Assembly: GCF_002159945.1 (NCBI RefSeq)
Contig: NZ_NFJQ01000008.1
Location: 62,001-126,000 of the forward strand
Reading direction: 5' to 3'
Length of the DNA: 64,000 nucleotides
Source: Cloacibacillus sp. An23
GTDB lineage: Bacteria; Synergistota; Synergistia; Synergistales; Synergistaceae
The position numbers were made by a program, and so were the translations under genes. The notes below the pieces were generated by a model that worked only from the letters and a program-made list of their open reading frames with translations, made no database searches and was not told where the DNA came from. Shown here piece by piece: positions 12,321 through 51,078 of the stretch; position 1 is the stretch's first letter, and every line of letters starts with the position of its first letter.

Positions 12321-12453
12321 GTTCTATTGTGGTGTCGATAGTATTGAAAATAATTTTTATGAAGTAACGGCATCCGCAAAGGCAGCGAGCCGCGCGGGCG
12401 TCCGCGAAAAAATAAAAGGGAGGCAGAGTGCCAATGATGTGTACTCGAAAGTC

Positions 12454-13560: not shown

Positions 13561-13601
13561 TTGTTGATTTTTTTCATAAAAATTAAAGGAGGTTGTGCCA
13601 A

Positions 13602-14399: not shown

Positions 14400-14437
14400 T
14401 GCGTTTCTTTTAAAACTAAGATAGGGAGATGTTATTT

Positions 14438-15445: not shown

Positions 15446-15464
15446 ATAGGCGCTAGCGCATTGC

Positions 15465-15526
15465 GTGAAAATGCGTATGCACTAGACTAGGCTGAAACAT
15501 ACGCATTTTCACTTTATTTAATTTTG
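15465..15526 (+). terminator. Hairpin between dctP and dctQ, locus 1
   Basis: GTGAAAATGCGTATG (15465-15479) and CATACGCATTTTCAC (15498-15512) form a perfect 15-bp stem with an 18-base loop, followed by a T-rich tail. It probably terminates part of the transcripts or protects the dctP mRNA, giving more binding protein than membrane subunits. Confidence 0.75.
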
Positions 15527-15552
15527 TAATGTCAACAAAAGGAGGAACTTTT

Positions 15553-16044
15553 TTGAAAACATTACTAAAAATAGACCGCTATATAGAATGTATACAAACG
15601 TATGTGTGTATGGCGTTGTTTATCGTAATTTTAGCTTTAGGCAGCGTCCAGGTTTTCGGGCGTTTTATTTTCCATACCGCGCCTGCATGGACGGAAGAAG
15701 CGATGCGTTTTTGCTGCATTTACCTGACTTTCATTGGTTCGGCACTCACCATCAGAGTTGATGGGCACGTTTCTGTTGATATTTTGATTAGTTTCTTAAA
15801 AGACAATAAGCTTAGAGCCTGGCTGTTTATTATAGGCAGAGTGCTATGTGTGATTTTTCTCATTATGTTCTTTCCAGCAGCAATCGAACTTGTGTCAAGG
15901 AGCGGCAGGTCACTCGGTGCGGCGATTCGAATACCTTATTCGTATATTTACGCGGCAGTGCCTATCGGTATAGCAATGATGCTTTGCTCTTACGCAAGCG
16001 CAATTCCTAAATTAGCGAAAGAATATGAAAAAGGGGAAAGATAG
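15553..16044 (+). CDS. dctQ: TRAP transporter small membrane subunit DctQ (locus 1)
   Basis: A 163-residue protein with four membrane segments, typical for DctQ: one at about residues 13-32, then the conserved FTAPAWTEEAMRF-like loop (HTAPAWTEEAMRFCCIYL), then RVDGHVSVDIL and a final pair. I place the start at TTG 15553, not the upstream ATG 15529, because AAAGGAGG (15538-15545) lies 7 bases before the TTG. The stop meets the dctM start codon with no gap (16044/16045), as in most TRAP operons. Confidence 0.9.
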   Translation: MKTLLKIDRYIECIQTYVCMALFIVILALGSVQVFGRFIFHTAPAWTEEAMRFCCIYLTFIGSALTIRVDGHVSVDILISFLKDNKLRAWLFIIGRVLCVIFLIMFFPAAIELVSRSGRSLGAAIRIPYSYIYAAVPIGIAMMLCSYASAIPKLAKEYEKGER

Positions 16045-17328: not shown

Positions 17329-17343
17329 AGAGGAGTAATTTGC

Positions 17344-18648: not shown

Positions 18649-18663
18649 AGGATGTGTAACGCA

Positions 18664-19974: not shown

Positions 19975-20068
19975 CGGAAAACCTAACGCGGCTGTACGGA
20001 AAATAAGTTTGCTCGAGAGCCGCCGGATATGTAAAATAGATAAAACCGACCAACAGGAGCGAACTTAC

Positions 20069-20929
20069 ATGAGCGAAGATATATCGAGCAAAGCATTTTT
20101 CAGCCGCATACAGGAAAAATTGGAATCCCTTTCCAAGATGGAGCGCAAGACGGCGGAATGTATGATGGAAAACCGCGACAAGCTGATCTACTCCTCCATC
20201 ACGGAACTGGCCGAGCTTGCCGGGACGAGCGAGGCGACCGTCACGCGGGTCTGCGCCAAGCTCGGCTACTCAGGGTTCCAGGCGCTTAAAGTCAGCGTCG
20301 CGCGCGAGCTTGTGAGCCAGCAGGACAAGATACACGAAGACCTGACGGCAGGCTCGCCGCCCGAAATGATAATAGACAAGATATTCTCGAGCGCCATCCA
20401 CACTCTCACGATGACGAGGAAGGCGCTCGACGGAAAAGCCGTCGCTGGCAGCATAGACGCTATTTGCAGAGCCCGGCGCATAGTCGTGATAGGCAACGGG
20501 AACTCAGGCGCCATCGCGCTCGACGCGCAGCACAAATTCCTGCGCATCGGGCTCAACGTCAGCGCCTACACCGACGACCACATGCAGATGATAGCGGTCG
20601 TCTCCATGACGAAAGAGGACGTGCTGCTCGCCATATCGCACTCCGGAAGCTCGCGCGACGTCGCCGAGGCGATGAAGCTGGCGAAGGAAAGAGGCGTTAC
20701 CGTCATATCCATTACGGACAACGGCATATCGCCCGTTTCGAAACTGGCGGACATACGACTCTACACATATTCGCAGGAGACGAAGTACAGGACATACGCC
20801 ATATCGTCGCGCATTGCGGAGCTGACCATCATCGACACACTGTACACCGGCGTGTCGCTGAAGCTCGGCGATAAGGCCATACAAAATTTCGAAGCTCTGG
20901 AGAAGGCGCTCGTCGTCAAGAAATATTAA
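20069..20929 (+). CDS. RpiR/MurR-family transcriptional regulator
   Basis: A 286-residue regulator. Residues 1-80 are the RpiR helix-turn-helix domain (FFSRIQEKLESLSKMERKTAECMMEN, then ELAELAGTSEATVTRVCAKLGYSGFQ). Residues about 125-265 form a SIS sugar-phosphate-binding domain (RRIVVIGNGNSGAIALDAQHKFLRIG, LLAISHSGSSRDVAEAM). RpiR regulators sense phosphosugars, so the effector here may be the product of the FGGY kinase just downstream. The ATG at 20069 follows CAGGAG. It is likely the local regulator of locus 1. Confidence 0.92.
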   Translation: MSEDISSKAFFSRIQEKLESLSKMERKTAECMMENRDKLIYSSITELAELAGTSEATVTRVCAKLGYSGFQALKVSVARELVSQQDKIHEDLTAGSPPEMIIDKIFSSAIHTLTMTRKALDGKAVAGSIDAICRARRIVVIGNGNSGAIALDAQHKFLRIGLNVSAYTDDHMQMIAVVSMTKEDVLLAISHSGSSRDVAEAMKLAKERGVTVISITDNGISPVSKLADIRLYTYSQETKYRTYAISSRIAELTIIDTLYTGVSLKLGDKAIQNFEALEKALVVKKY

Positions 20930-20994
20930 AAACTGTGCCGGTTCTTTTCGGCGCGGCGCTTCCTCCCGGCGTACATACATTGGGGGAATAAATC

Positions 20995-22518
20995 GTGACG
21001 GAAAAACTTTTCGGCGTTGATTTCGGAACCGGCGGCTGCAAAGCCACCGTTATAGACAAAGAGGGAAACATCCTGGCCTCCGCCTTTGAGGAATACCCCT
21101 CCGAACACAAGCATCCCGGATGGTCCGAGCAGGCCCCGTCCCTCTGGATAGAAGCTTTCATCAAAACTGTAAAATCCTGCCGCGGACAGATGAGCGACGG
21201 CTTCGCCGGAATGCTCGCGCTCGCCGTCACCGCCTCGACGCACAACGCGGTGCTGATGGACGAAGCGGGAAAAGTCATACGCCCCTGCATCATGTGGAAC
21301 GACCAGCGCAGCGGCGGCCAATGTAATCGCCTCAAAGAAAAATACGGCGAAGAGATATTCCGCATAGGAATGCAGATGCCGACGCCGACGTGGACCCTGC
21401 CGCAGCTTCTCTGGCTGAAAGAGAACGAGCCGGAAAACTACGGAAAAATAAAGCGCCTCATGTTCACAAAAGACTACGTGCGCTCATGGGTGACGGGAGA
21501 CTTCTGCACCGACATCGTAGACGCGCAGGGGAGCCTGCTCTACGACGCGCGCAAAAACGCCTGGTCTCCCGAGCTCTGCGGAATGATAGAGCTGCCGCTA
21601 TCCGTCCTTCCAGAAATACGCGGAACAAAGGAAATCGTCGGAAAAGTCCGCGCCGAAGCGGCCGCGCTTACCGGACTTCCCGAAAGGCTCCCGGTAATAG
21701 CCGGATGCTCCGACACTGCCGCGGAAGACTTCAGCGCCGGAGCGGTCAACGCCGGACAGATAATAGTAAAGCTTGCGACCGCGGGCAACGTCAACCTCAT
21801 CACAGACAACGCCGTCCCCCACGCAAAATCATTCACGTACCCATACTCCGTAGAGGGCAAGTGGTACACCGTGACGGCGACCAACAGCTGCGCCTCTGCC
21901 TACAGATGGATGCGCGACGCGCTGTACCCCGCGGAAAAAGAACTCTGCGAAGCGAAGGGCGAAGACGTCTACATGCTAATGGACGAACAGGCGTCGAAAG
22001 CCGAACTCGGCGCGCGCGGCCTGATATTCCATCCGTACCTGCTGGGCGAACGCTGCCCGTACTTCAACCCCAACGCGCGCGGAGACTTCTTCGGCGTCAG
22101 CATGGTACACAACAAAGGCGACTTCGCCCGCGCGCTGCTCGAAGGCGTCGCATTCAGCCTTTACGACTGCCTCCAGGTACTCAAAGACTTCACCGGCAAC
22201 ATGGAAGACATCGTCATAATAGGCGGCGGTGCGAAAAGTCCGCTGTGGAGCCAGATCGTATGCGACGTATTCGGCCTCGAAGTAAAAATGCCCGAGCACG
22301 CGGAATCCTCCTTCGGCGGAGCGCTCCTCGCCGGAGTTGGCGTAGGCGCGTTCTCCGACGAAATCGAAGCCGCGCGCAAATGCGTAAGAATGAAACGCAC
22401 ATACAAACCGGCTTCGGAAAACCACGCGAAATACGAAAAAATATTCGCCATCTACAAAGAAATAGTAGAAGCCTCCGCACCGATATGGGACAAGCTCGCG
22501 CACATAGCGAATGAGTGA
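20995..22518 (+). CDS. FGGY-family carbohydrate kinase (xylulokinase-like)
   Basis: A 507-residue sugar/polyol kinase starting at GTG 20995 after GGGGGAA. The N-terminal phosphate loop is GVDFGTGGCKATVID; the catalytic Asp is likely in IMWNDQRS; the C-terminal ATP motif is IIGGGAKSPLWSQIVCDVFG. Its best match in feel is the XylB group, but FGGY kinases accept many sugars and polyols (xylulose, glycerol, ribulose, erythritol). With the GldA-like and SDR dehydrogenases of this locus it suggests that a polyol or ketose moiety is oxidised and phosphorylated. An imperfect hairpin follows the stop. Confidence 0.88.
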   Translation: MTEKLFGVDFGTGGCKATVIDKEGNILASAFEEYPSEHKHPGWSEQAPSLWIEAFIKTVKSCRGQMSDGFAGMLALAVTASTHNAVLMDEAGKVIRPCIMWNDQRSGGQCNRLKEKYGEEIFRIGMQMPTPTWTLPQLLWLKENEPENYGKIKRLMFTKDYVRSWVTGDFCTDIVDAQGSLLYDARKNAWSPELCGMIELPLSVLPEIRGTKEIVGKVRAEAAALTGLPERLPVIAGCSDTAAEDFSAGAVNAGQIIVKLATAGNVNLITDNAVPHAKSFTYPYSVEGKWYTVTATNSCASAYRWMRDALYPAEKELCEAKGEDVYMLMDEQASKAELGARGLIFHPYLLGERCPYFNPNARGDFFGVSMVHNKGDFARALLEGVAFSLYDCLQVLKDFTGNMEDIVIIGGGAKSPLWSQIVCDVFGLEVKMPEHAESSFGGALLAGVGVGAFSDEIEAARKCVRMKRTYKPASENHAKYEKIFAIYKEIVEASAPIWDKLAHIANE

Positions 22519-37701: not shown

Positions 37702-37863
37702 TACAAGCGGATCCGCGGGCGAGCTGAGTCCTTCAAAATGCTGAATTTTGCTTAATTTTCATATGAAGTGTGTTTAATATGTTATACTTCTGGCAGATAC
37801 GAAAAAGCGGCATGAACGTATCTAAAATGCGCGCGGATGCGGAGGAGGGCTGTCCACGGCAAA

Positions 37864-39921
37864 ATGGGCGCGTCTTACCTGAATGAATCTGTCATAAGCG
37901 CAGTCTCGCGCGCCGTGGGCCATTCGCTCGACGTTCCGGCCTGCGTGCTGGACTTGGAGCTGAAGCAGCGGCTCGTTCTCGGCGGTGGCGGAGAGCGGTT
38001 CGCGGCGGATCTGTCGCGTCTGCTTGAGAGCGCCTCCGGCCCGGATGAGGCCGCGCGTATCGCGGACGCCGCGTCCGTCTATTGGACGCCGTGCGAGGCT
38101 GACGGCAGGACGGTCTGCTATATCGCCGCGCCGGCGGAGCGAGGCGAGCTCGCTGCGGCCTATCTGAAAGTCCTGATACAGGCCGAGTGCCGCATGGACG
38201 CGGAGGGCGGGGCCGAGGAGGAGGGGCGCAAGCGCTCGATGCTCGTCAGCCAGCTCGCCGGCTCCGGACGCATAGACTCGGAGGCGGAGTCATACCTCGG
38301 CGCTCTCGGCTATGAACGCGACATACTTCGCTGCGCGGTGCTCTGCGTCGTGGAGACCGCGTCGGGACATCACGACGGCGAGGTGCCGTTCATTTCTCTC
38401 GAACGCTGGGCCGCCGGGGCCGGGATACTGTCTCGCGAGGATATCTACGGCTACGCCGACGCCGGGCAGATGATAGTGTTCAAGGCCGTCCCTGGCGCCG
38501 ACTATACCTCTTACGCCGGAGAGATAAAAAGCATGGCGGCCTCTATGTCGGAGTACATATCGGAGCGTTCCTCCGGGCTCGCCGAGCTTTCGGTATACGC
38601 CGGAAGCGCCTATCAGGGAGTCTCGCTGCTTCATAAGAGCTACGCCGAGGCGGCGTATCTCTATTCACGGCACGGCGGAACGGGCGGATCGTGCCTCTTC
38701 ATCAACGACTTTATATTCGAATGGCTTTACTCCAATCTTGACGGCGCGGCGCGAAGGAACCTCGCGCGCGATATATCGTCGGCGCTGGACGAGAACCAGG
38801 AAATATCCGCCACGGCGGTGCGCCTGTCGCTGTCGGACTGCAGCCCGATAAAATGCGCGGAAGCTCTTGGCGTCCACCGCAACACGGTACTCCAGCGCAT
38901 AAGAAAAATAAAAGAGAGGACCGCGCTCGACCCGCTGCACAGCGTGCGCGACCGCGTAGCTCTGCGCGCCTGCGTCATAAACAGGACGCGGCGCACGGTG
39001 TGGAACGGCGGCGTAATCGTGCAGCCGGGCAGCGTGCTCAGCCTCGGGCTGCGCCATCTTTCGGAGCTGCTTTACGAGAAGAGCGGCGGCGGATTCCAGC
39101 TCAACATCCACACGGTATCGACCTCCGGCGACAATTACAAGCTATTCGGCATGCTGATGTCCGGCGCGCTGAACGTAGTCGTCGGCTCGACGATAGCGCT
39201 CTGCCCGTACACCGACAACAAAGCGCTCACACTTCATCTGCCTTTCCTCTTCAAGTCGCCGGACGAGGCGGAGTACGTCGTCCGCACCACGGTCCTCCCG
39301 GAGCTGCGCGACAGCCTCGACGAGGCCGGGATAATATGCTGCGGCCTATGGTCGATGGGCTGGCGCTGCCTCACCTCGCGCGGCACGCCCATCCGCGTCC
39401 CGTCCGACCTGAAGGGACGGCGGATAAGGATACTCGCGTCGGCCTCGATACGCGACTACTTCGCCGGCCTCGGCGCGGTGCCGCTCCAGATTTACTATAA
39501 CAACATCAAAGACGCGCTCGCCTCGAATATAATCAACTGCCAGGAGAATCCCTACAAGAACATCCTCGACATGGAATTCTACAAATACCAGGACTATGTG
39601 ACGGAGCTGCCTATATGGTACAGCATGGAGGCGCTCTGCATCTCTAAGAAATCGTGGCTCGAACTCGACGTGGAACGCCAGGAAATGTTCCGACAGGCGG
39701 CGGAGGAGAGCGGGGCGTGGGTGCGCCGCCGCCAGGTCGAGACGAACCGCGCCGCGAAGGAGGAGCTCGTGCGCCTCGGCATGAAGGTAATTGTCCCGAC
39801 CGACGACGAGATGGCTGTATGGCGCAGGAGCGTCAGGCCTCTTTACGAGGCGGAATCTCGGCGCGAATTCCTCACCAAGATAATGAAGGCGAAGAGACGC
39901 TATGCAAAGAGCAGACGCTGA
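37864..39921 (+). CDS. CdaR/PucR-type regulator fused to a TRAP solute-binding (DctP) domain
   Basis: A 685-residue cytosolic one-component regulator with an unusual architecture. Residues 1-130: a CdaR-like sensor region. About 130-300: a degenerate GGDEF-like region as in CdaR/PucR proteins. About 300-360: the PucR-type DNA-binding domain (ALGVHRNTVLQRIRKIKERT, with V337 in the recognition region). Residues 379-680: a complete TRAP DctP domain without signal peptide, keeping SDLKGRRIRI (R522 equals the carboxylate-binding arginine) and QENPYKNI (Q560-I567). It resembles the binding protein at 41279 over this part. The start at 37864 is uncertain (ATG 37837 is possible). It overlaps the next regulator by 20 bases. 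Confidence 0.85.
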   Translation: MGASYLNESVISAVSRAVGHSLDVPACVLDLELKQRLVLGGGGERFAADLSRLLESASGPDEAARIADAASVYWTPCEADGRTVCYIAAPAERGELAAAYLKVLIQAECRMDAEGGAEEEGRKRSMLVSQLAGSGRIDSEAESYLGALGYERDILRCAVLCVVETASGHHDGEVPFISLERWAAGAGILSREDIYGYADAGQMIVFKAVPGADYTSYAGEIKSMAASMSEYISERSSGLAELSVYAGSAYQGVSLLHKSYAEAAYLYSRHGGTGGSCLFINDFIFEWLYSNLDGAARRNLARDISSALDENQEISATAVRLSLSDCSPIKCAEALGVHRNTVLQRIRKIKERTALDPLHSVRDRVALRACVINRTRRTVWNGGVIVQPGSVLSLGLRHLSELLYEKSGGGFQLNIHTVSTSGDNYKLFGMLMSGALNVVVGSTIALCPYTDNKALTLHLPFLFKSPDEAEYVVRTTVLPELRDSLDEAGIICCGLWSMGWRCLTSRGTPIRVPSDLKGRRIRILASASIRDYFAGLGAVPLQIYYNNIKDALASNIINCQENPYKNILDMEFYKYQDYVTELPIWYSMEALCISKKSWLELDVERQEMFRQAAEESGAWVRRRQVETNRAAKEELVRLGMKVIVPTDDEMAVWRRSVRPLYEAESRREFLTKIMKAKRRYAKSRR

Positions 39922-41005
39922 ACGGCTCTTTCAGATGGCCTGCGCCGCGTTCCCGCGCGGCGGCGTCGCGCTCTTCGACGGCGGCGTCAGGCTGATGTGC
40001 CGCGAGGACGCCGAATGCGGCGTTCCGCCCGCACGCTTTGATATGAGGAAAGAGGCGTCGGTCTTTTCGCGCGGCGGACGGCTTTACTATCTCGTGCAGC
40101 TCCCGCTGCCTCCGTCCTTTCAGATATTCCTGTGCCTGCGCGCCGAAGATTATTCGAGCGCCGCTGTTCCAGTACGAATGCTCGACGTGCTCGCATCCGA
40201 GGCGCGCCGCTGCGGCGGCGAAAGCGCGCCGGATGATGCGCGCGCCGCCCGTCCGGGGGAGAACCGCCTTCTCGACAGCCTGCTCTATACGGACACGCTC
40301 GAGATGAAAGTCTACACCTTTCTGCTCGCCGAGGAATACGGCAAAGACCTCGGCATACCGCGCGCCGTCTGCGTCGTGAACGGCGGGGCCGAAGAACTGC
40401 GCGAGGCCGCGCGCGTCGCGTCGCGCTTTCGCGAGGCCGACGCGCAGGACATATGCGGCCTGACCGGCGAGGGACGGCTGGTGATATGCCGCTGCCTCGG
40501 CGAGACGCGGCGCTCGGTGAAGAGCAGGCTCGACGGATACCTCCGCGCCCTCTCCGAACGGATAAGCGCGCGCTGCGGGTTTGCGCCGGAGATATTCGTT
40601 GGTACGTACGCCGCCCAGCCCGAAGAATACCGCCTCAGCCTCGAGGCCGCGCTTATCGCGGGCGAATGGGCGCGCGCGGAAGGAAAGCGCGGCGGGATAT
40701 ACTACGCCTCGGAATATATTCTTGAATACACATTCCAGAAGACCGAGCCGTCGCAGCTCCGCCACTTCCTTGCGCCGTACGCGGAGCGGCTGCGCGGCGA
40801 GCCGGAGCTGCTCGCTACGGCAGAGGCACTTATCGAATGCGATATGAACGTGATCCTCACGGCGGAGAAGCTGTTTGTGCACAGAAACACCGTGACGATG
40901 AGGGTGTCGCGGCTGCGCGAGCTCCTCGGCGTCGACCCGCTGCACAGGGACACGGATAAATTCCTCCTTATGCTGATATGCGCATATTATAGGCGATATT
41001 GCTGA
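39902..41005 (+). CDS. CdaR/PucR-type transcriptional regulator
   Basis: A 367-residue regulator whose gene overlaps the end of the fusion regulator by 20 bases. The N-terminal half is a divergent sensor region; residues about 160-290 look like the GGDEF-like linker (PRAVCVVNGGAEELREAARV to EIFVGTYAAQPEEYRLS); the C-terminus is the PucR HTH domain (FVHRNTVTMRVSRLRELLGVDPL, V326 onward). It lacks the DctP domain of its neighbour. The coupled pair suggests a hetero-oligomer or a sensor/effector split for control of the TRAP operon that starts at 41279 (inference). Confidence 0.82.
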   Translation: MQRADAERLFQMACAAFPRGGVALFDGGVRLMCREDAECGVPPARFDMRKEASVFSRGGRLYYLVQLPLPPSFQIFLCLRAEDYSSAAVPVRMLDVLASEARRCGGESAPDDARAARPGENRLLDSLLYTDTLEMKVYTFLLAEEYGKDLGIPRAVCVVNGGAEELREAARVASRFREADAQDICGLTGEGRLVICRCLGETRRSVKSRLDGYLRALSERISARCGFAPEIFVGTYAAQPEEYRLSLEAALIAGEWARAEGKRGGIYYASEYILEYTFQKTEPSQLRHFLAPYAERLRGEPELLATAEALIECDMNVILTAEKLFVHRNTVTMRVSRLRELLGVDPLHRDTDKFLLMLICAYYRRYC

Positions 41006-41278: not shown

Positions 41279-42280
41279 ATGAGAAAAAGCATTATGTCCG
41301 CAGTGATGGCCCTTATGGTCGCGGCCGCCGCGTTCGCGGGGCAGGCCGAGGCCGCCACGACGCTGAGGCTCGGCCACGTCGTAGCCGACAACAGCAGCCT
41401 CGACAAGGGGCTCGACTACTTCGCCAAGCTCGTCTCCGACAAGTCCGGCGGAGAGCTCAAGATCCAGGTCTTCCCGAACTCCTCGCTCGGCGACAACACC
41501 GCTATGATGGAGCAGCTCCAGTTCGGCTCGCTCGACATGATGGCCCCGTCGGTCGCCGCGCTCTCCGGCTTCACGCCGAGCACCGCGATATTCGACCTGC
41601 CCTACCTCTTTAAGAACGAAGCCGCCGCTGAGGAAGTCCTCGACGGCCCGCTCGGCGACTCCGTGGGCAAAGCGCTCGAGCCGCAGGGATTCTACCTTCT
41701 CGGCTGGATGACCCAGAGCTGGCGCCACCTCACATGCAACAAAGAAGTGACGAAGCCCGCCGACGTCGCAGGCATAAAGATCCGCACGATGGACAGCAAG
41801 TACCACATGGCGCACTTCAACACGCTCGGCGCTTCCGCGATACCGATGGCGATGTCCGAGCTCTACACCGCGCTGCAGCAGGGAACCATCGACGCGCAGG
41901 AGAACCCCTACACGAACATAGTCAACTCGCGCTTCTATGAAGTCCAGAAGTACGTCGTCGAGACGGGCCACATCTACGACGCCTGCCCGCTCATCATCTC
42001 CACCATCACCTGGAACAGGCTCAACGACGACCAGAAGAAGATAATCAAGGAAGCCGCAGCCGAAGCGGTCAACTGGGAGCGCGCCGAGGTCAAGAAGGAC
42101 GACGATATCTTCCGCGAGCAGGTCAAGAAGAGCGGCACGACGGTCATCGTGCTGACGCCGGAGCAGCGCATGGAGTTCCGTAAAGCCGCCCAGCCCGTCT
42201 ACGACGAGTTCGTGAAGGAGCAGGGGCAGAGCGGAGCCGACGCAGTGAAGGCCGTCGAGGCGATCAACGCAAAGCACTAG
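41279..42280 (+). CDS. dctP: TRAP transporter solute-binding protein DctP (locus 2)
   Basis: A 333-residue periplasmic binding protein with a signal peptide (MRKSIMSAVMALMVAAAAFAG, cut near AEA-AT). DctP motifs are LRLGHVVADNSSLDKGLDYFAKLV, FPNSSLGDN, KPADVAGIKIRTMDSK (carboxylate arginine) and IDAQENPYTNIVNSRFYEVQKYV. It is the likely periplasmic counterpart of the cytoplasmic DctP domain in the regulator upstream, so the two may bind the same or related acids. The 270 bases before it are AT-rich and hold a hairpin at 41219-41243 just ahead of the ribosome site. Confidence 0.94.
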   Translation: MRKSIMSAVMALMVAAAAFAGQAEAATTLRLGHVVADNSSLDKGLDYFAKLVSDKSGGELKIQVFPNSSLGDNTAMMEQLQFGSLDMMAPSVAALSGFTPSTAIFDLPYLFKNEAAAEEVLDGPLGDSVGKALEPQGFYLLGWMTQSWRHLTCNKEVTKPADVAGIKIRTMDSKYHMAHFNTLGASAIPMAMSELYTALQQGTIDAQENPYTNIVNSRFYEVQKYVVETGHIYDACPLIISTITWNRLNDDQKKIIKEAAAEAVNWERAEVKKDDDIFREQVKKSGTTVIVLTPEQRMEFRKAAQPVYDEFVKEQGQSGADAVKAVEAINAKH

Positions 42281-42324
42281 GGTTTTAAGCGAACGATAAA
42301 CCTCAGATAGGTTTTTGAAGTCGC

Positions 42325-42360
42325 GGGGAGAGTGTGGGCTTCCCATGCTCTCCCCTTTGT
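42325..42360 (+). terminator. Hairpin between dctP and dctQ, locus 2
   Basis: GGGGAGAG (42325-42332) and CTCTCCCC (42348-42355) pair, with TGGG/CCCA extending the stem past a small mismatch, followed by TTTGTTG. Its place matches the hairpin between dctP and dctQ of locus 1. Confidence 0.7.
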
Positions 42361-42383
42361 TGTCTCAAAAAAAGGAGAATTTC

Positions 42384-42878
42384 ATGTTAATCGATAAAAA
42401 AGCACCGTGGTACGATAAAATCGAGATAGCGATGATAATCGTGCTCTTCAGCATCCTCACGGTCATACTTTTCGTAAACGTCGTCACGCGCTTCTGCTTC
42501 CACTACACGGCGACTTGGTCGGAGCAGGCCGCGCGCTATCTCTTCGTTTGGATGACCTTCGCCGGCGTCAGCCTCGCCGGCAAGACGAGCTCGCATCTGC
42601 AGGTCACGGTAGCGAACATGGTCTTCGGCGAGGAGCGCGCGAAGACTGTATTCCTCATCGGCGATATAATAGTCGTCCTCTTCGGCTGCCTGCTCACCTA
42701 TAAAATTTTCGGCGTCATGATGCGCGTCATGTCCACGGGACAGGTGTTCCCGGCCATGACGTGGCTGCCGTCGTGGACTCTCTACCTCGCCGGCGTGCTC
42801 GGCATGGCGGGCTTCACGCTCAGGGTCATACAGCGCCGCTGCAGGACCGCAGCTGCGGCTAAGCACAAGGAGGCTTAA
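42384..42878 (+). CDS. dctQ: TRAP transporter small membrane subunit DctQ (locus 2)
   Basis: A 164-residue protein with four hydrophobic segments and the DctQ landmark FHYTATWSEQAARYLFVWMTFAGVSLAGKTSSHLQV. The ATG at 42384 follows AAAGGAGAA; the longer frame from 42315 reads through the intergenic hairpin and is not used. dctM starts 6 bases later. DctQ holds the large subunit and contacts the periplasmic binding protein. Confidence 0.92.
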   Translation: MLIDKKAPWYDKIEIAMIIVLFSILTVILFVNVVTRFCFHYTATWSEQAARYLFVWMTFAGVSLAGKTSSHLQVTVANMVFGEERAKTVFLIGDIIVVLFGCLLTYKIFGVMMRVMSTGQVFPAMTWLPSWTLYLAGVLGMAGFTLRVIQRRCRTAAAAKHKEA

Positions 42879-42883
42879 CTGAT

Positions 42884-44170
42884 ATGATAGCTTTACTTAT
42901 CGGCACCCTTCTGGTGCTTCTTTTCCTCACCGTTCCTATCTTCGCCGGACTCGCCATATCGACGCTCGCCGTCTTCATGGCCTACTTCCCGGGACAGATG
43001 ATGGACATGATGCTCGCGCAGTCTATGGTCAAGAGCTGCGACTCCTTCGCACTGATGGCGATACCGTTCTTCATGCTCGTCGGATCGCTGATGTCCACCT
43101 CGGGGCTCGCGCAGAAGCTCGTCAAGGTCGCCGAATCGGTGACCGGCGACTCGGCGGGCGGCCTCGGCACCTCGGCTATGATAGCGAGCATGCTCTTCGC
43201 CGCCATCTCAGGTTCCGGCCCCGCGACCGCGGCGGCCATCGGAGGCATAATGATCCCCGCTATGATGAAGCAGGGCTACGCTCCAGAATACTCGGCTACG
43301 CTGCTCGCCTCCGGCTCGACGATAGGCCCGGTCATCCCGCCGAGCATTCCTATGATAATGTTCGCAGTCACGATAGGCTGCTCGACGACGACGCTGTTCA
43401 TGGGCGGAGTCGTCCCCGGAATCATGATGGGCATCGGCCTCATCATCTACAACAAGCTCTACTCGAAGAAGCATAACTACCGTGGCAAGCCCTCCTCCGG
43501 CGGCACGATGAAGGCCGTGCGCGAAGGCATCGGCGCTCTGCTCATGCCCGTCATCGTCCTCGGCGGTATCTACACCGGCATATTCACTCCGACAGAGTCC
43601 GCGGTCGTCGGCGTCGTCTACTCGATGGCGGTCAGCACCTTCATCTATAAGACTCTGACATGGGACGGCCTCAAGGAAGCTTTCGTTGACGCGGCTATAA
43701 CCTCCGCGACCATAATGATCCTCTTCGGCGGAGCCAACACCTTCGGGCGCATACTGACGCTCGCCGACATACCGAACCAGATCAGCAGCGCGATACTTTC
43801 CTTCACGGACAGCAAGGTGCTTATCATGCTGATACTGAACTTCATACTGCTCATCGTCGGCATGTTCATAGATACGAACTCCGGCGTCATACTCTTCGCG
43901 CCGATCATCGTCCCGATACTCAAGGCGCTCGGCTATCACGAGATATTCATCGGCGTAATGATGGTTGTCAACCTCTGCATAGGAATGCTGACGCCTCCTA
44001 TGGGGCCGAACCTCTTCATAACGATGAAGATCGCTGGCGTTTCGCTCGAGCAGGCGATGAAGCAGGTCGTGGTTCAGGTCATAATCCTCTACATAGTGCT
44101 CGCGATCATGATACTGATACCGGACACGGTGCTCATTCTCCCGAAGCTTTTCGGAATGATCCCTTGGTAA
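42884..44170 (+). CDS. dctM: TRAP transporter large membrane subunit DctM (locus 2)
   Basis: A 428-residue, about 12-helix protein closely parallel to the locus 1 DctM. Signatures are MAIPFFMLVGSLMSTSGLAQKLVKVAES, GGLGTSAMIASMLFAAISGSGPATAAAIG, GPVIPPSIPMIMFA and IGMLTPPMGPNLFI. Unlike locus 1, its composition is as GC-rich as the surrounding genes, so the two transporters are not a recent duplication. The enzymes of locus 2 follow on the same strand. Confidence 0.94.
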   Translation: MIALLIGTLLVLLFLTVPIFAGLAISTLAVFMAYFPGQMMDMMLAQSMVKSCDSFALMAIPFFMLVGSLMSTSGLAQKLVKVAESVTGDSAGGLGTSAMIASMLFAAISGSGPATAAAIGGIMIPAMMKQGYAPEYSATLLASGSTIGPVIPPSIPMIMFAVTIGCSTTTLFMGGVVPGIMMGIGLIIYNKLYSKKHNYRGKPSSGGTMKAVREGIGALLMPVIVLGGIYTGIFTPTESAVVGVVYSMAVSTFIYKTLTWDGLKEAFVDAAITSATIMILFGGANTFGRILTLADIPNQISSAILSFTDSKVLIMLILNFILLIVGMFIDTNSGVILFAPIIVPILKALGYHEIFIGVMMVVNLCIGMLTPPMGPNLFITMKIAGVSLEQAMKQVVVQVIILYIVLAIMILIPDTVLILPKLFGMIPW

Positions 44171-44213
44171 CGGATTTTCGGCAGTTAAGATATAGTTAAG
44201 GAGATATAGTAAA

Positions 44214-44966
44214 ATGTATTTGGCTAATGAGTTGGACGTAAACGGACGTCTTCTGCGCGGAAACGTGCGCATGCCGGACTCGGGCGGTCCTTTCCCGACG
44301 ATAGTCTTCCTCCACGGCTTCACTGTGTGGAAGACGGGGCCGCAGAGGCTTTACGAAGAGTTCGTCCGTATGGCCGTGAAGGAAGGCTTCTGCGTCGTGC
44401 GCTACGACTTCTACGGCACGGGCGAGAGCGAGGGCGAGTTCTATGAAATGACGATAGGCAGCGAAATGAACGAGACCGCCGCCATCTTCGAGTGGGCCGC
44501 CAAGCAGCCGTACGTCGATGTAAACAACATGTTCCTCGGCGGACACAGCCTCGGCGCTCTGCTCGCGCTCGTCGAAGCGCCTCATATACAGCCTAAGGCG
44601 GCCTTCGGATGGTCTACGGCTCTCACGATGCTCTTCCAGGCGGGACAGCGCACGCGCACGATGCGCGGGCCGACTGAGCGCGGATGGGACATCGACGGCC
44701 TCGAGCTCTCGCGCGAATTCATGGACGAGTGCGCCGGCATGGACTTCCTCGAGATGGTGAAGGGCTACGACAAGCCGGTACTTCTCATCCACGGCACTGG
44801 CGACGTGGACATCCCCGTCGAGAGCGCCTACGCGCTTAAGAAGGTCTACGGGGACAACTGCGAGCTCGACATCGTGGAAGGGGCGAACCACCGCTTCCTT
44901 TCGCTTCCGTGGAAGAAGCACGCTTACGAGAAGACTCTGGAGTTCCTGAAGAAACAGCTTGGCTGA
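44214..44966 (+). CDS. Alpha/beta-fold hydrolase
   Basis: A 250-residue cytosolic serine hydrolase. The oxyanion stretch is VFLHGFTVWKTGP, the nucleophile elbow GGHSLGA (Ser near residue 111), the acid in HGTGDVDIP and the histidine in GANHRFLSL. This is the complete triad of the family that includes feruloyl esterases and dienelactone-type hydrolases. AAGGAG precedes the ATG. Set between a TRAP transporter and a LarA-like protein, it probably splits an ester, amide or thioester bond of the imported compound or its product (inference). Confidence 0.88.
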   Translation: MYLANELDVNGRLLRGNVRMPDSGGPFPTIVFLHGFTVWKTGPQRLYEEFVRMAVKEGFCVVRYDFYGTGESEGEFYEMTIGSEMNETAAIFEWAAKQPYVDVNNMFLGGHSLGALLALVEAPHIQPKAAFGWSTALTMLFQAGQRTRTMRGPTERGWDIDGLELSREFMDECAGMDFLEMVKGYDKPVLLIHGTGDVDIPVESAYALKKVYGDNCELDIVEGANHRFLSLPWKKHAYEKTLEFLKKQLG

Positions 44967-44978
44967 GAGGTGGAAGCA

Positions 44979-46247
44979 ATGGAGATAAAGATCCCTTACG
45001 GGAAGACTTATCAGACGCTTGACATCAAAGAGGAATATCAGCTCGTCGAATCGAAGATACAGGAGCTCGGCGGCGGCGCGGACGGCGACAGGATCGTCCT
45101 TGAGGCTATGGCTTCGCCCATAGCTTCACCGAAGCTCAGCGAGCTTGCGGCGGGGAAGAAGAACGCGGTGGTCATAATCAGCGACCACACGCGCCCCGTG
45201 CCGAGCAAACAGATAATCCCGCACATGCTGGCGGAGCTGCGCGCCGGGAATCCCGACATCGACATAACCCTGCTCGTCGCGACCGGCTGCCACAGGGGCA
45301 CCACTCCCGAGGAGCTCGTGCATAAGCTCGGCGAGGAAATCGCGTCGCGCGAGCGCATAGTCGTCCACGACTGCGACAGTTCCCCGCTGACGGAGCTCGG
45401 CGTCCTTCCTTCCGGAGCGCGCCTCGTCGTCAACTCGCTCGTCGCGAACGCGGAGCTTGTTGTATCCGAAGGCTTCATCGAGCCTCACTTCTTCGCCGGC
45501 TTCTCCGGCGGCCGCAAGAGCATACTTCCCGGCGTATGCAGCCGCGTGACGGTGCTAGGCAATCACTGCGCGGATTTCATCGACGATCCGAAGTCGCGCA
45601 TGGGCGTGATTGATGGCAACCCGATAAACCGCGACATGGAATGCGCCGCTCGCATGGCGAAGCTCGCATACATCGTCAACGTCGTGGTCAACGAGGCTCA
45701 CGAGGTCGTAGCGGCCTTCGCCGGCGACGCGATAGAGGCCCATCACGCGGGATGCGCCTATCTCGCAAAGTACTGCGAGGCCGACCCTGCGTACAAGGCG
45801 GACATCGTAATAACGTCCAACGGCGGCGCCCCGCTCGACCAGAACGTCTATCAGGCGGTCAAGGGACTTACGACCGCTGCGGACGCGGCCGGCGAAGACG
45901 GCGCTCTGATAATATGCGCCGAGTGCGCGGACGGAATCGGAGGCGACAGCTTCTACAAGGCGCTCAGCGAGTGTTCGACCCCCGAGGAGCTGCTCGAGGA
46001 GATACGCCGCGTGCCGATGGACGAAACTGTGCCAGACCAGTGGCAGTATCAGATACTCGCCCGGATACTCGAGAAGCATCACGTCTACTTCGTCACACGC
46101 CCCGAGCTCGAAAAAGAGATAACGGCGATGAAGATGGAATACGCGCCCTCGCTCGAGGAGGCCTACGCGCGCGCCCGCGCGCTCAGGGGCGCTTCCGCGC
46201 GCGTGACGGTCATCCCCAACGGGGTTTCCCTGATAATCAAACAGTAA
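44979..46247 (+). CDS. LarA-family protein (nickel-pincer 2-hydroxyacid racemase/epimerase)
   Basis: A 422-residue member of the LarA family (former DUF2088). The residues that bind the nickel-pincer nucleotide in Lactobacillus LarA have clear counterparts: His in TGCHRGT, His and Lys in PHFFAGFSGGRKSILPG, and a further His in LGNHCAD. LarA homologs racemise lactate, malate, phenyllactate and other 2-hydroxyacids. A LarC2 protein, needed to make the cofactor, is encoded at 50605, which supports activity in this cell. GAGAGG places the start at 44979, 12 bases after the hydrolase stop. Confidence 0.88.
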   Translation: MEIKIPYGKTYQTLDIKEEYQLVESKIQELGGGADGDRIVLEAMASPIASPKLSELAAGKKNAVVIISDHTRPVPSKQIIPHMLAELRAGNPDIDITLLVATGCHRGTTPEELVHKLGEEIASRERIVVHDCDSSPLTELGVLPSGARLVVNSLVANAELVVSEGFIEPHFFAGFSGGRKSILPGVCSRVTVLGNHCADFIDDPKSRMGVIDGNPINRDMECAARMAKLAYIVNVVVNEAHEVVAAFAGDAIEAHHAGCAYLAKYCEADPAYKADIVITSNGGAPLDQNVYQAVKGLTTAADAAGEDGALIICAECADGIGGDSFYKALSECSTPEELLEEIRRVPMDETVPDQWQYQILARILEKHHVYFVTRPELEKEITAMKMEYAPSLEEAYARARALRGASARVTVIPNGVSLIIKQ

Positions 46248-46276
46248 CCCAGCAGCAATAACATAAGCCGCTCCCT

Positions 46277-46310
46277 CAGCCTTCCGCCTTTGCCGTTGCG
46301 CGGAAGGCCG
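46277..46310 (+). other. Intercistronic hairpin before GrdE-like gene
   Basis: CCTTCCGC (46280-46287) and GCGGAAGG (46300-46307) form an 8-bp stem in the 94-base gap after the LarA-like gene. There is no T run, so it may be a processing or stability element and not a terminator. Confidence 0.45.
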
Positions 46311-46341
46311 GGGGCGGCGTGTCACAAAAAGGAGTGAAAAC

Positions 46342-47607
46342 ATGGCAAAACCTTTTGAAATAGATTATATCTACGTGCGCTCGGTGCGCTTCGGAGAGAA
46401 GTCGTCGCTCGAGGACGGCGTGCTGACGATAAACCGCGACGAGCTGCGCGAGCTTTGCTCGAGCGACCTGTTTTCGCGGCTCGAGATAGAGCTCGCGGCT
46501 CCGGGCGAAAGCTGCCGCATACTCGCGATACACGACGTCATGCAGCCGCGCTGCAAGGTCGAGAACCCCGACGAGACTTATCCCGGCATTCTCGGCAAAC
46601 TCGCGCCGGCCGGCGAGGGGAAGACGCTGGCGCTCAAGGGCGTCGTCGTCTCCGACATCTATTACGCTAAATGCAACATCAAGTATTACCTCGATATGGG
46701 CGGCCCCGCGGCGCGCTACTCGCATTTCTCGAAGCACTTCCACGTCTGCATAGACGCGGAGCCCGCCGATGGCGTGAGCGACGCCAGCTACGCCGAGGCG
46801 CTGAAGCTCGCATCGCTCAAGGCGAACGTCTACCTCGCGAAGCTCGGCCTCGGACATAAAATCGACTACTCGGAGCGCTTCGAGTGGAACCCCATCGAGT
46901 ACAAGCCCGGCGAGAAGCGTCTGCCGCGCGTCGCATACTTCGCGACGCACCTCGCATCGCACGACACGTGGAACTTCCTCTTCTACGGACAGAGCGCTCT
47001 CGGCTTCCTGCCGATGGTGGTGCAGCCGACTGAGATACTCGACGGCGCGATGGTCTGGCGCTACTGGGAGCCGAACTACTATCTCCAGAACGAGATGTAT
47101 ATCAAAGAGCTGCTCAACCGCCACGGCAAGGATCTCGAATTCGTCGGATGCGTCTTCGCGAACAACGTCATGAAGCTCGACGGCAAAGAGACGATGGGCA
47201 TGATAGGCGCGCGCCTCTGCCGCGACACCCTGCACGCGGACTGCGTGGTAGTCAACAAATCCGGCATGGGACACGCGCAGCTCGACTCGGCCCTCGCCTT
47301 CAACTGGATGGAGAAGCTCGGTATGCCGGCGATAAGCAACCAGGCCGCCGTCTCTAACTACGAGCCGGGGGACATGCTCGTAATAGCAGACCCGCGCGTG
47401 GACGCGGTCATAAGCAGCGGGCGCAACTGGGACGTGGAACACCCGAAGGTCGACCGCCTCATAGGCGAACACGCGAACGTGCCGTGCCTGCTCGGCTACA
47501 ATCCGTGGGGGCCTTTCACGCACACGACGAACTACGCGCTGTGCGGCTGCTGGTCTCAGATAGGCGATTATTTCCAGACGGCGGATGCCGACCTGGAGTG
47601 GAAGTAA
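46342..47607 (+). CDS. GrdE-type subunit, divergent, lacking the pyruvoyl cysteine (locus 2)
   Basis: A 421-residue member of the GrdE/GrdG/GrdI family, aligned with the locus 1 protein through DIYVRSVRFGEKSSLEDGVL-like start, HDVMQPRCKVENPDETYPGILG, VVQPTEILDGA and RHGKDLEFVG. In the segment where GrdE is cut at a cysteine to form the pyruvoyl group (residues 234-265 here) there is no Cys, Ser or Thr at all, and the segment is 3 residues shorter than in locus 1. The subunit therefore probably stays uncut or uses other chemistry. It is paired with a Sec-containing GrdB-type protein 13 bases downstream. Confidence 0.85.
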   Translation: MAKPFEIDYIYVRSVRFGEKSSLEDGVLTINRDELRELCSSDLFSRLEIELAAPGESCRILAIHDVMQPRCKVENPDETYPGILGKLAPAGEGKTLALKGVVVSDIYYAKCNIKYYLDMGGPAARYSHFSKHFHVCIDAEPADGVSDASYAEALKLASLKANVYLAKLGLGHKIDYSERFEWNPIEYKPGEKRLPRVAYFATHLASHDTWNFLFYGQSALGFLPMVVQPTEILDGAMVWRYWEPNYYLQNEMYIKELLNRHGKDLEFVGCVFANNVMKLDGKETMGMIGARLCRDTLHADCVVVNKSGMGHAQLDSALAFNWMEKLGMPAISNQAAVSNYEPGDMLVIADPRVDAVISSGRNWDVEHPKVDRLIGEHANVPCLLGYNPWGPFTHTTNYALCGCWSQIGDYFQTADADLEWK

Positions 47608-47620
47608 GGAGGTATGCGCC

Positions 47621-48940
47621 ATGTCTGATAAATTAAGGATACTTCATTACATAAACCAGTTCTACGGAGGTATAGGCGGCGAGGATCAGGCGAGCGTCGG
47701 ACTCTCGACAAAAGACGGCCCCGTCGGCCCCGGTATGCTTATGAAGGCCGTGCTCGCGGGACGCGGCGAGATCGTCAAGACGGTCATCTGCGGCGACAAC
47801 TATATATCCGAGCACCAGGCCGAGGTGATACCGCAGATACTCGATATAATCCGCGAGGTGAAGCCCGACCTTGTGCTCGCGGGCCCAGGCTTCAACGCCG
47901 GACGCTACGGCATAGCCTGCGCGGCGCTGACTGCGGCCGTGCAGGAGCAGCTCAAGATCCCCTGCGCTACGGCGCTGTTCTCGGAGAACCCGGGCACAGA
48001 CCTTTATAAGAACCGCTGCTACATCGTGCAGACCGACAACAACGCGAAGAACATGAAGGACGCGATGACGCGCCTCGTCGAGTTCGGCCTCAAGCTCGCC
48101 TCGGGCGAAACGATACGCGACGGCAAGCAGGAGGGCTACCACGGCAGCGGCCCCGCGATAGAGGTGGACTACTCGACGCCGGCCTGCAAGCGCGGCGTGG
48201 ACATGCTTCTCAACAAATATTACGGCAGGCCCTTCCGCACAGAGGTCGTCATGCCGAACCACGAGGAGATACCGGTGCCGGTGCTGTCGAAGCCGCTTTC
48301 AGAATGCCTCGTAGCGGTCGTGACCGACGGCGGACTCGTGCCGCGCGGCAACCCTGACAGGATGCCGCCGACGAACTCTAAGAACTGGCGCTGCTACTCG
48401 TTCGCAGGGCAGGACTACCTGAAAGCCGAGGATTACGAGGTCAGCCATCAGGGCTACAACAACGCCTTCGTACTTCAGGACCCGAACCGCCTAGTGCCTG
48501 TCGACTGCCTGCGCGAGGAGGTAAAGAAAGGGCGCATAGGCGCGCTGCTCGACCACTACTACATGACCGCGGGCGTCATGACTCCGCTCGACATGAGCAA
48601 GAAGCTCGGCGAAGGCATAGCGCAGGCGCTGCTCGCGGACCATGTCGACGCCGTGATCCTCACATCCACCTGAGGAACGAGCTCTCGCTGCGGCGCAGTG
48701 ATGACAAAAGAAATACAGCGCGCCGGCATACCGGTCGTGCATGTCACGAACCTTACGAAGATATCGGAGGGCATAGGCGCGAACAGGATACTTCGCGGCA
48801 ACAGCGTCCTCCACGTATTCGGCAACCCGTCGCTTCCTCACGACAAGGAAGTAGACTACCGCCGCGAGATGGTCGAGAAGGCTCTCGCCCTTCTCGAGGA
48901 AACTCCGCAGAACGGAGCCCACGCGGTAGTCTCCGAGTAA
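47621..48940 (+). CDS. GrdB-type selenoprotein (locus 2)
   Basis: A 439-residue protein including selenocysteine encoded by TGA at 48671-48673 (residue 351). Readthrough gives ILTST-U-GTSSRCG-AVMTKEIQRAGIP, the GrdB signature, and continues as normal coding sequence to TAA at 48938-48940. Start ATG 47621 follows AAGGAGG. The N-terminal ILHYINQFYGGIGGEDQA and NAGRYGIACAAL are family blocks shared with the locus 1 protein. The Sec and nearby Cys (U-x5-C) likely form the redox-active selenide-sulfide pair. The general partners GrdA, GrdC and GrdD are not in the window. Confidence 0.93.
48685..48701 (+). promoter_or_regulatory. Candidate bacterial SECIS hairpin (locus 2)
   Basis: TCGCTG (48685-48690) and CAGTGA (48696-48701) form a 6-bp stem (one G-U pair) with loop CGGCG, starting 12 bases after the last base of the TGA, as in locus 1. 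Confidence 0.75.
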
Positions 48941-48969: not shown

Positions 48970-49010
48970 TAAGCTCCGCGTGACTGTACTGTCCGCGGAG
49001 CTTATTTTAT
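48970..49010 (+). terminator. Terminator after locus 2 selenoprotein gene
   Basis: AAGCTCCGCG (48971-48980) and CGCGGAGCTT (48994-49003) form a perfect 10-bp stem followed by ATTTTAT. It marks the end of the operon that starts at dctP (41279). Confidence 0.85.
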
Positions 49011-49135
49011 CGCGCATCTCCGGCGGAGACCGCTCTTGCAATTTTGCGGTATATATATTAGAGTTGGTCTAGTTGTATTAGCGTAACGCAACCTACGGTG
49101 TGCGGAAGTTTTATAGAAAGCTGGGAGGCTGGCGT

Positions 49136-49576
49136 ATGATAGACGAAACGCAGGCTTTGGAGGGATTCGGCTCGGGCGTGATCTGCTCGATGCTGGTGTT
49201 CGGCGAGCTGGCGACCGAGCTCGGGCTGGACGAAAAGACGGCGCGGCGCATAGCGTCCTGCTTCGGCTCCGGCATGGAGCACGCGGGCGTCTGCGGCTGC
49301 GTGACCGGCGCGTATATGGCGCTCGGCCTGAAATACGGCGTCGGAGGCCCGGGCGAGGCCGAACGCGCAGCGAAGCTGAAAGAAAAGAAAGACGAGTTCG
49401 ACCGCCGCTTTATTAAAAAATACGGAAGCGTCAACTGCAAAGAGCTGCTCGGCGGCCTTGACCCCGCGGTGCAGTCGGAGCTGAACGCGGCGGCCGGAGC
49501 CGGGCTTTTCAAAAGCGTCTGCGCGCCAGCGGTGTGCTACGCGTGCGCGGCGGCGAGGGAGCTTTTGTCCGAGTGA
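49136..49576 (+). CDS. C_GCAxxG_C_C family redox protein
   Basis: A 146-residue protein of the C_GCAxxG_C_C family (DVU_1555-like). The conserved cysteine pattern appears as SCFGSGMEHAGVCGCVTGAYMALG near residue 38, with NCKELLG and a late VCYACAAAREL. Family members are small putative redox or metal-binding proteins of anaerobes, often near Fe-S or selenium enzymes; no activity is known. I chose ATG 49136 after GGGAGG. It lies just downstream of the Grd operon, past a terminator, so a functional tie is only suggested by position. Confidence 0.82.
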   Translation: MIDETQALEGFGSGVICSMLVFGELATELGLDEKTARRIASCFGSGMEHAGVCGCVTGAYMALGLKYGVGGPGEAERAAKLKEKKDEFDRRFIKKYGSVNCKELLGGLDPAVQSELNAAAGAGLFKSVCAPAVCYACAAARELLSE

Positions 49577-50604: not shown

Positions 50605-51078
50605 ATGGCTGAAGGAGAATCCGGCGGCCTCATAAGAGGACGCGCCATAGAGATAAGCGCGAACATCGACGACATGACTGGCGAGGACCTCGGCGCTGCG
50701 ATGGAGCTGCTGCTCGCTGCCGGGGCGCTGGACGTTTGGTTCGAGCATATACAGATGAAAAAGAACCGTCCGGCGGTGAAGCTCTGCGTTCTGGCCGCGC
50801 CGGAGGAAACGGAGCGCTTCGCGGAGCTTATGCTGCGCCATACGACGACGCTAGGCGTGCGTATGCGCGAGGTCGAGCGGCTGATGCTCGCGCGGGAGAT
50901 CCGTAAAGTCGGGACGCGCTACGGCGAAGTGCGCTTCAAGCGCGGCATGCTCGGCGGCGAAACGCTGAAAGAGACGCCCGAGTACGAGGACATAAGAAGG
51001 ATAGCGCACGACACCGGGCTTCCGATGGCCCGCGTGCGCGCGGAGGCCGCCGTGGATGCGGAAATTCAGGCACTTTAA
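50605..51078 (+). CDS. larC2: LarC2-like nickel-insertion protein for the nickel-pincer cofactor
   Basis: A 157-residue protein equal to the C-terminal half of LarC (former DUF111). The diagnostic stretch is ISANIDDMTGEDLGAAMELLLAAGALDVWFEHIQMKKNRPAVKL, followed by TTTLGVRMREVERLML. LarC inserts nickel into the pincer nucleotide used by LarA, and in many bacteria it is made as LarC1 plus LarC2. LarC1, LarB and LarE are not in this window. It supports a functional cofactor for the LarA-like protein 4.4 kb upstream. It overlaps the next gene by 23 bases. Confidence 0.85.
   Translation: MAEGESGGLIRGRAIEISANIDDMTGEDLGAAMELLLAAGALDVWFEHIQMKKNRPAVKLCVLAAPEETERFAELMLRHTTTLGVRMREVERLMLAREIRKVGTRYGEVRFKRGMLGGETLKETPEYEDIRRIAHDTGLPMARVRAEAAVDAEIQAL

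What the first reader, a model, noticed from the sequence alone, without database searches (positions are those of the whole stretch)
41279..48940. TRAP-hydrolase-LarA-Grd selenoenzyme operon: possible new reductive catabolic pathway
Seen: dctP, dctQ, dctM, alpha/beta hydrolase, LarA-like protein, GrdE-like and Sec-containing GrdB-like genes in one direction, closed by a terminator at 48970. Known: Grd components B act on glycine, sarcosine or betaine; LarA acts on 2-hydroxyacids; TRAP systems import carboxylates. I know of no described pathway that combines LarA with a Grd selenoenzyme. Inference: an imported acid is hydrolysed and epimerised, then reductively cleaved to yield acetyl-phosphate or a related product through GrdA/C/D.
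Basis: partly seen in the sequence, partly recalled or inferred. Interest (0 to 1): 0.8.

Follow-up and report, generated by a model that had tools for sequence, protein, structure and literature searches.

The report
TRAP-fed fluoroacetate-reductase-type operon with LarA
In an anaerobic Synergistota bacterium, the two-part selenium enzyme family linked to fluoroacetate breakdown sits in a gene block with its own importer, an esterase and a lactate-flipping enzyme, and a Clostridia genome carries the same set in a different order, which gives a way to find out what these enzymes normally act on.

Summary
dctP, dctQ, dctM, an alpha/beta hydrolase, larA, a GrdE-like gene and a selenocysteine GrdB-like gene run in one direction at 41279-48940, and a hairpin terminator follows. 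The GrdE-like protein scores 756 bits (cut-off 675) on the NCBIfam model for fluoroacetate reductase subunit FarE. Both subunits show the published FarE/FarB marks: Sec in STUG, no CxxC, no pyruvoyl cysteines. Published far operons carry an MFS antiporter and usually a radical-SAM protein. Here a TRAP importer, a serine esterase and a lactate-type LarA take their place. A Clostridia MAG carries all of these genes with FarEB turned round. The two FarE and two FarB sequences form their own clade (support 1.000). No other sampled Synergistota genome has the set. Most likely this is a TRAP-fed variant of the far system: Sec351 displaces a leaving group next to a carboxylate and GrdA/C/D yield acetyl phosphate. 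Substrate and the LarA/esterase role are unproven; lactate released by the esterase as electron donor is my first guess. New variant of a known kind.

The parts
37837..39921 (+). reg1: PucR-type regulator fused to a DctP-like ligand-binding domain with no signal peptide; probably senses the imported ligand in the cytoplasm
   Evidence: Pfam HTH_30 333-378, GGDEF_2 144-273, DctP 394-672; 44% identical counterpart in L006; carboxylate-clamp positions kept
39902..41005 (+). reg2: second PucR-type regulator, overlaps reg1 by 20 nt
   Evidence: Pfam HTH_30; 44% counterpart in L006
41279..42280 (+). dctP: TRAP solute-binding protein with signal peptide
   Evidence: TIGR00787 269.7 bits, above cut-off; Arg149, Arg169 and Asn209 match the carboxylate clamp of 4P47; 71% in L006
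42325..42355 (+). terminator-like hairpin between dctP and dctQ
   Evidence: 14-pair stem and T-rich tail
42384..42878 (+). dctQ: TRAP small permease
   Evidence: Pfam DctQ 2.3e-22
42884..44170 (+). dctM: TRAP large permease
   Evidence: TIGR00786 369 bits, above cut-off 268; 76% in L006
44214..44966 (+). abH: cinnamoyl-esterase-like serine alpha/beta hydrolase, apparent triad Ser112-Asp197-His226 (GHSLG, GTGDVD, GANHRF motifs at residues 110, 194, 223)
   Evidence: 80% in L006; 41% paralogues beside other TRAP systems
44979..46247 (+). larA: nickel-pincer lactate racemase type
   Evidence: NF033504 575 bits over cut-off 460; catalytic, NPN and lactate-recognition residues kept; 70% in L006
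46266..46322 (+). strong hairpin in the larA-farE gap, no T tail; could attenuate or process the transcript
   Evidence: -39.4 kcal/mol, z -3.65
46342..47607 (+). farE: FarE-family subunit of a Grd-type protein B, no pyruvoyl cysteines
   Evidence: NF053623 755.7 bits over cut-off 675; alignment and tree
47621..48940 (+). farB: GrdB-type selenoprotein, UGA/Sec codon 351 at 48671-48673, CxxC lost
   Evidence: Pfam GRDB 428.9 bits, TIGR01918 412.9 bits, read-through, alignment of 12 family members
48970..49005 (+). intrinsic terminator closing the unit
   Evidence: fold z -3.74
50605..51078 (+). larC2: C-terminal half of the NPN nickel-insertion protein, standing alone
   Evidence: NF052512 154.5 bits; larE-larB-larC1 lie together on another contig

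Best explanation
This is a TRAP-fed variant of the far (fluoroacetate reductase) system. DctPQM imports a small carboxylate. FarE and FarB form the substrate-specific 'protein B' of a Grd-type reductase: selenocysteine 351 of FarB displaces a leaving group (fluoride, or another small group) from the carbon next to the carboxylate, giving a carboxymethyl-selenoether. This passes to the cell's single GrdA, and GrdC/D release acetyl phosphate. The esterase goes with the importer and probably cleaves an imported ester. LarA equilibrates D- and L-lactate, or a very similar 2-hydroxy acid, most likely so that both forms can be oxidised to provide electrons for the reductive step. Shown here: gene content, Sec codon, FarE/FarB membership, lactate-type LarA, cofactor and GrdA/C/D genes, recurrence in a second phylum. 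Inferred: the chemistry (from the published family), the ester, the role of lactate, and the substrate.
For: FarE passes the curated cut-off (755.7 vs 675) while the other four GrdE-type proteins of the genome fall far below (next best 193). FarB keeps Sec in STUG and lacks CxxC, FarE lacks pyruvoyl cysteines, as published for farB/farE, whose operon is induced about 5000-fold by fluoroacetate. GrdA with in-frame TGA is present here and in 12 of 13 FarE genomes, and GrdC/GrdD-like genes lie beside grdE-grdB on contig 5. In other FarE loci the importer slot is filled by an L-lactate-MFS-like antiporter, a lactate-permease-family protein or DUF5058 proteins, so swapping the importer is normal for this family. 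Window and L006 FarE/FarB form one clade, support 1.000. LarA has all the lactate-racemase residues; larE, larB, larC1 and larC2 are all present. Two FAD-oxidase_C (GlcD/Dld-type) proteins could oxidise lactate.
Against: Twenty-one FarE positions that never vary among the MFS- and LctP-type FarEs are changed in the TRAP clade (for example C312A, S335A, Y400L, Q401C, I403C), so the substrate may differ. LarA cannot act on achiral fluoroacetate. farC is missing: the best radical-SAM match in the genome is 31% identical. No induction or activity data exist for this organism. The L006 genome, a MAG, shows no GrdA. The FAD-oxidase_C proteins were not shown to be lactate dehydrogenases.
Confidence: 0.5

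Rival explanations
1. One reading: a 2-hydroxy-acid ester is imported and hydrolysed, LarA makes the one enantiomer that FarEB accepts, and FarEB reductively removes a group from that chiral acid, giving an acyl phosphate. This would parallel D-proline reductase, which is served by proline racemase.
For: larA lies directly between the esterase gene and farE, 12 nt and 94 nt away, and the linkage survives in a second phylum with rearranged order. Other FarE loci use lactate-type importers. TRAP-clade FarE has its own set of substitutions. The authors of the far paper doubted that fluoroacetate is the preferred substrate.
Against: No known Grd-type enzyme cleaves C-OH of an unactivated 2-hydroxy acid (general knowledge). 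In DctP the acidic position that binds a ligand hydroxyl in pantoate/erythronate binders is Asn73, which does not favour direct import of a free 2-hydroxy acid. In L006 FarEB is divergent from larA.
Confidence: 0.2
2. A plain fluoroacetate or haloacetate reductase whose importer happens to be a TRAP module; the esterase and LarA are passengers of that module or serve an unrelated acid.
For: The esterase also accompanies paralogous TRAP plus PucR-DctP modules that have neither LarA nor FarEB. The larA-farE gap holds a strong hairpin, so FarEB may be expressed separately.
Against: LarA and FarEB are both absent from the paralogous TRAP modules but present together in both known cases. Passengers are not expected to stay linked through a rearrangement across phyla.
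Confidence: 0.22
3. Two unrelated operons (TRAP-esterase-LarA and FarEB) that are neighbours by chance.
For: The set is absent from every other sampled Synergistota genome, and an internal hairpin separates the two halves.
Against: Same content in a different gene order in a Clostridia MAG, with a matching FarE/FarB clade.
Confidence: 0.07

Closest known systems
farACEB, fluoroacetate reductase operon of Cloacibacillus porcorum MFA1 (PMC10838667)
   Same: FarE and Sec-containing FarB; loss of CxxC in FarB and of pyruvoyl cysteines in FarE; reliance on GrdA from elsewhere in the genome
   Different: no MFS antiporter (farA) and no radical-SAM farC beside it; TRAP, esterase, LarA and PucR regulators instead; FarE about 71% identical to the MFS-type Synergistota proteins; substrate untested
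Betaine, sarcosine and glycine reductase protein B (GrdHI, GrdFG, GrdBE)
   Same: two-subunit Sec protein-B architecture feeding GrdA
   Different: scores far below the curated cut-offs (192 vs 780 for GrdG, 387 vs 775 for GrdH); CxxC and pyruvoyl site absent
D-proline reductase with proline racemase (Prd)
   Same: a racemase gene beside a Grd-type selenoenzyme (from general knowledge)
   Different: PrdA/PrdB are distant (TIGR04483 80 vs cut-off 300); the racemase here is nickel-dependent and acts on 2-hydroxy acids
Lactate racemase LarA of Lactobacillus / Thermoanaerobacterium
   Same: NF033504 above cut-off; catalytic, NPN-binding and lactate-recognition residues kept
   Different: sits in a TRAP/FarEB unit; larC is split, with larC2 near larA and larC1 elsewhere

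Membership tests
FarEB fluoroacetate reductase | FarE above the curated score of NF053623 | tested here: met
   755.7 vs 675
FarEB fluoroacetate reductase | FarB with in-frame UGA (Sec) in STUG and no CxxC | tested here: met
   LTSTUGTSSRCGA, codon 351; Sec at the same place in 12 family members
FarEB fluoroacetate reductase | FarE without the pyruvoyl-forming cysteines | tested here: met
   canonical GrdE NCVS-CDKN region replaced by VWRYWEPN
FarEB fluoroacetate reductase | GrdA (and GrdC/D) in the same genome | tested here: met
   one GrdA with TGA; GrdC/D-like genes beside grdEB on contig 5, assigned by position and length only
farACEB operon as published | MFS antiporter farA next to farEB | tested here: not met
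   no match to far-type MFS in the window; TRAP instead
farACEB operon as published | radical-SAM farC next to farEB | tested here: not met
   none in the window; best in genome 31% identity; also absent in published C. evryensis and P. piscolens operons
FarEB fluoroacetate reductase | induction by and turnover of fluoroacetate | not testable with these tools
   needs culture or purified enzyme
Glycine/sarcosine/betaine reductase protein B | scores above GrdG/GrdF/GrdH/GrdB cut-offs | tested here: not met
LarA lactate racemase | curated score plus equivalents of D72, R75, H108, H174, F175, F176, K184, H200, Y294, Q295, V297, K298, W358 | tested here: met
   575 vs 460; residues by alignment
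LarA lactate racemase | NPN cofactor genes larB, larC, larE in the genome | tested here: met
   LarC1 and LarC2 by PF01969; larE and larB recognised from sequence and position next to larC1, not by a model search
LarA lactate racemase | racemase activity on lactate | not testable with these tools
   needs assay
Hydrolytic fluoroacetate dehalogenase (alpha/beta hydrolase) | aspartate nucleophile | tested here: not met
   the nucleophile-elbow residue is Ser in GGHSLGA
TRAP transporter | DctP, DctQ, DctM together, SBP with the carboxylate-binding Arg | tested here: met

The most novel reading that the evidence does not exclude
FarEB of this clade is a stereospecific selenoenzyme that reductively removes a group from a 2-hydroxy acid (or from an acid derived from it), with LarA supplying the right enantiomer, and fluoroacetate is only an accidental substrate of the family. 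This would be a new kind of anaerobic energy-conserving reaction for hydroxy acids.
Probability: 0.12. Interest if true: 0.85.

Novelty: new variant of a known kind. Interest (0 to 1): 0.5.

Why it matters
Fluoroacetate reductase (FarEB) is a proposed anaerobic, reductive way to break a C-F bond, yet relatives occur in organisms such as Catonella morbi, where fluoroacetate is an unlikely diet (an inference). A conserved gene set that adds a dedicated importer, an esterase and a lactate racemase narrows the search for the natural substrate and makes it directly testable. If the reaction is on a 2-hydroxy acid it would open a new branch of Stickland-type metabolism. If it is a haloacid, the TRAP system is a new entry route for anaerobic defluorination.

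Tried and rejected
Hydrolytic fluoroacetate dehalogenase for the hydrolase: rejected, serine nucleophile. Canonical glycine, sarcosine or betaine reductase: rejected by scores and missing motifs. farC elsewhere in the genome: only radical-SAM proteins of about 31% identity or less. Solved structures of FarE or FarB: none in the PDB by sequence. The AlphaFold model of FarB (pLDDT 82) gave only weak, non-specific PDB matches with TM about 0.2. The FarE model (pLDDT 73) was unreliable in several loops, including 336-351 and 397-412 near some of the clade-specific residues, so no pocket analysis was made. More FarE loci in 394 and 400 genomes drawn from the order and family of the Clostridia MAG: none besides the MAG itself; the two draws overlap. 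Viral contigs: none. Plasmids: only distant GrdG-type proteins below 35% identity. RNA fold after the UGA: a small hairpin but no better than shuffles (z -0.35), so a SECIS element is not shown by folding.
Full report
Observation. The GrdB-like gene is one reading frame of 439 codons (47621-48940) interrupted by a single TGA at codon 351, in LTST-U-GTSSRCGA. A hairpin with a T-rich tail follows at about 48970-49005. Upstream, two PucR-type regulators (37837-41005) point the same way. The first is fused to a DctP-like domain with no signal peptide and is probably an internal sensor of the imported ligand (inference). Intergenic gaps are short except dctP-dctQ and larA-farE, both with strong hairpins, so separate expression levels are possible.

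Identity of the selenoenzyme. The GrdE-like protein matches NCBIfam NF053623, fluoroacetate reductase subunit FarE, at 755.7 bits against a curated cut-off of 675; the next family, GrdG, gives 192 against 780. In 185 Synergistota genomes only eight proteins from seven genomes pass the cut-off, one more scores 669, and the next score is 221 bits, so the family is sharply bounded. The published farACEB operon of Cloacibacillus porcorum MFA1 is induced about 5000-fold by fluoroacetate; its FarB lacks the CxxC and its FarE lacks the pyruvoyl cysteines. Both losses are seen here and in all family members aligned. The genome has a single GrdA with an in-frame TGA, a grdE-grdB-TrxA-grdA locus, a grdEB locus followed by GrdC/GrdD-like genes, and a betaine-type grdEB with a BCCT-like transporter (names by position and sequence, not by a model search). 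GrdA is found in 12 of 13 FarE genomes, missing only from the Clostridia MAG G185.

Neighbourhoods. FarE loci fall into four importer types: (a) MFS, closest to an L-lactate or oxalate/formate type and sometimes with the radical-SAM protein (L009, L051, L052, L053); (b) LctP lactate-permease family, usually with a DsbA-like protein (L007, L008, L010 Catonella morbi, L048, L049, L050); (c) FarEB followed by a DUF5058 protein (L054); (d) TRAP with esterase and LarA (window and L006, a Clostridia MAG). L055 lies at a contig end and shows no importer. In L006 TetR, radical-SAM, reg1, reg2, dctP, dctQ, dctM, esterase and larA lie on one strand and farE-farB are divergent. Identities between window and L006 are esterase 80, LarA 70, DctM 76, DctP 71, DctQ 65, FarE 81, FarB 76 and regulators 44 percent. 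Window and L006 FarE, and likewise FarB, form a clade with support 1.000. The high identity across phyla suggests transfer of the block; the changed order with kept content suggests selection for linkage (inference). No other sampled Synergistota genome has the close esterase. Paralogous TRAP plus esterase plus PucR-DctP modules without LarA or FarEB lie on contig 10 of the same genome and in G033, so the esterase belongs to the transporter.

LarA and cofactor. LarA passes the lactate-racemase model (575 vs 460), not the malate-racemase ones. The positions that PMC7583248 lists for catalysis, NPN binding and lactate recognition are conserved. larE, larB and larC1 lie together on contig 5, larC2 alone at 50605-51078 of the window.

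Importer and esterase. The nearest solved DctP relatives belong to a group that, where liganded, was mostly found with pantoate or erythronate (PMC11668362). The carboxylate clamp is kept (Arg149, Arg169, Asn209), but the position of the acidic residue that contacts a ligand hydroxyl aligns with Asn73 and the aromatic lid position with Met192 (by alignment only). So a carboxylate is likely, and a free polyhydroxy acid less so. The hydrolase is a cinnamoyl-esterase-like serine enzyme with an apparent Ser-Asp-His triad, not a hydrolytic dehalogenase.

Mechanism. Shown: gene content, Sec codon, family membership, cofactor genes. From the published family: FarB Sec attacks the carbon next to the carboxylate and GrdA/C/D give acetyl phosphate. 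Inferred: the esterase releases a lactate-like acid, LarA equilibrates it, and its oxidation supplies electrons. Two FAD-oxidase_C proteins are present but were not shown to be lactate dehydrogenases.

Novelty. No paper in the held library combines GrdB with lactate racemase in this sense (one search returned one paper, on iron regulation in C. difficile), and none combines glycine reductase, selenoprotein and TRAP transporter. The library holds open-licence papers only. I rate this a new variant of a known kind.

Noticed in passing
window 12271-22518: A second TRAP plus Grd-type selenoprotein cluster: Fe-ADH-like, SDR, dctP, dctQ, dctM, GrdE-like (17344-18648, 193 bits to FarE, not FarE), GrdB-like with in-frame TGA at 19708 (codon 353, STUGTSTRCGS), RpiR regulator, FGGY sugar kinase. 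Substrate unknown.
   Followed up: partly
window 37837-39921; L067 13430-15481; L068 1375-3426: PucR-type regulators fused to a DctP domain, recurring beside TRAP operons: a binding-protein domain apparently reused as an internal ligand sensor.
   Followed up: partly
L048 9001-9822, L007, L009, L052, L053, L054 near farEB: Short FarB-like proteins (C-terminal half only, Cys in place of Sec, STCGTSTRCGA in most) beside a TetR regulator in most far loci; not part of the published farACEB. Absent from the window.
   Followed up: partly
window 50605-51078 and L073: larC is split: larC2 stands alone near larA while larE-larB-larC1 form an operon on another contig.
   Followed up: partly
L051 and L050 (G117): One genome carries two far loci of different importer type (MFS and LctP).
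   Followed up: no
G185 (genome of L006): No GrdA found in this MAG although it has FarEB; incompleteness or a different acceptor.
   Followed up: no
window 49100-49576: C_GCAxxG_C_C family redox protein just after the terminator; possible thiol partner, not tested.
   Followed up: no
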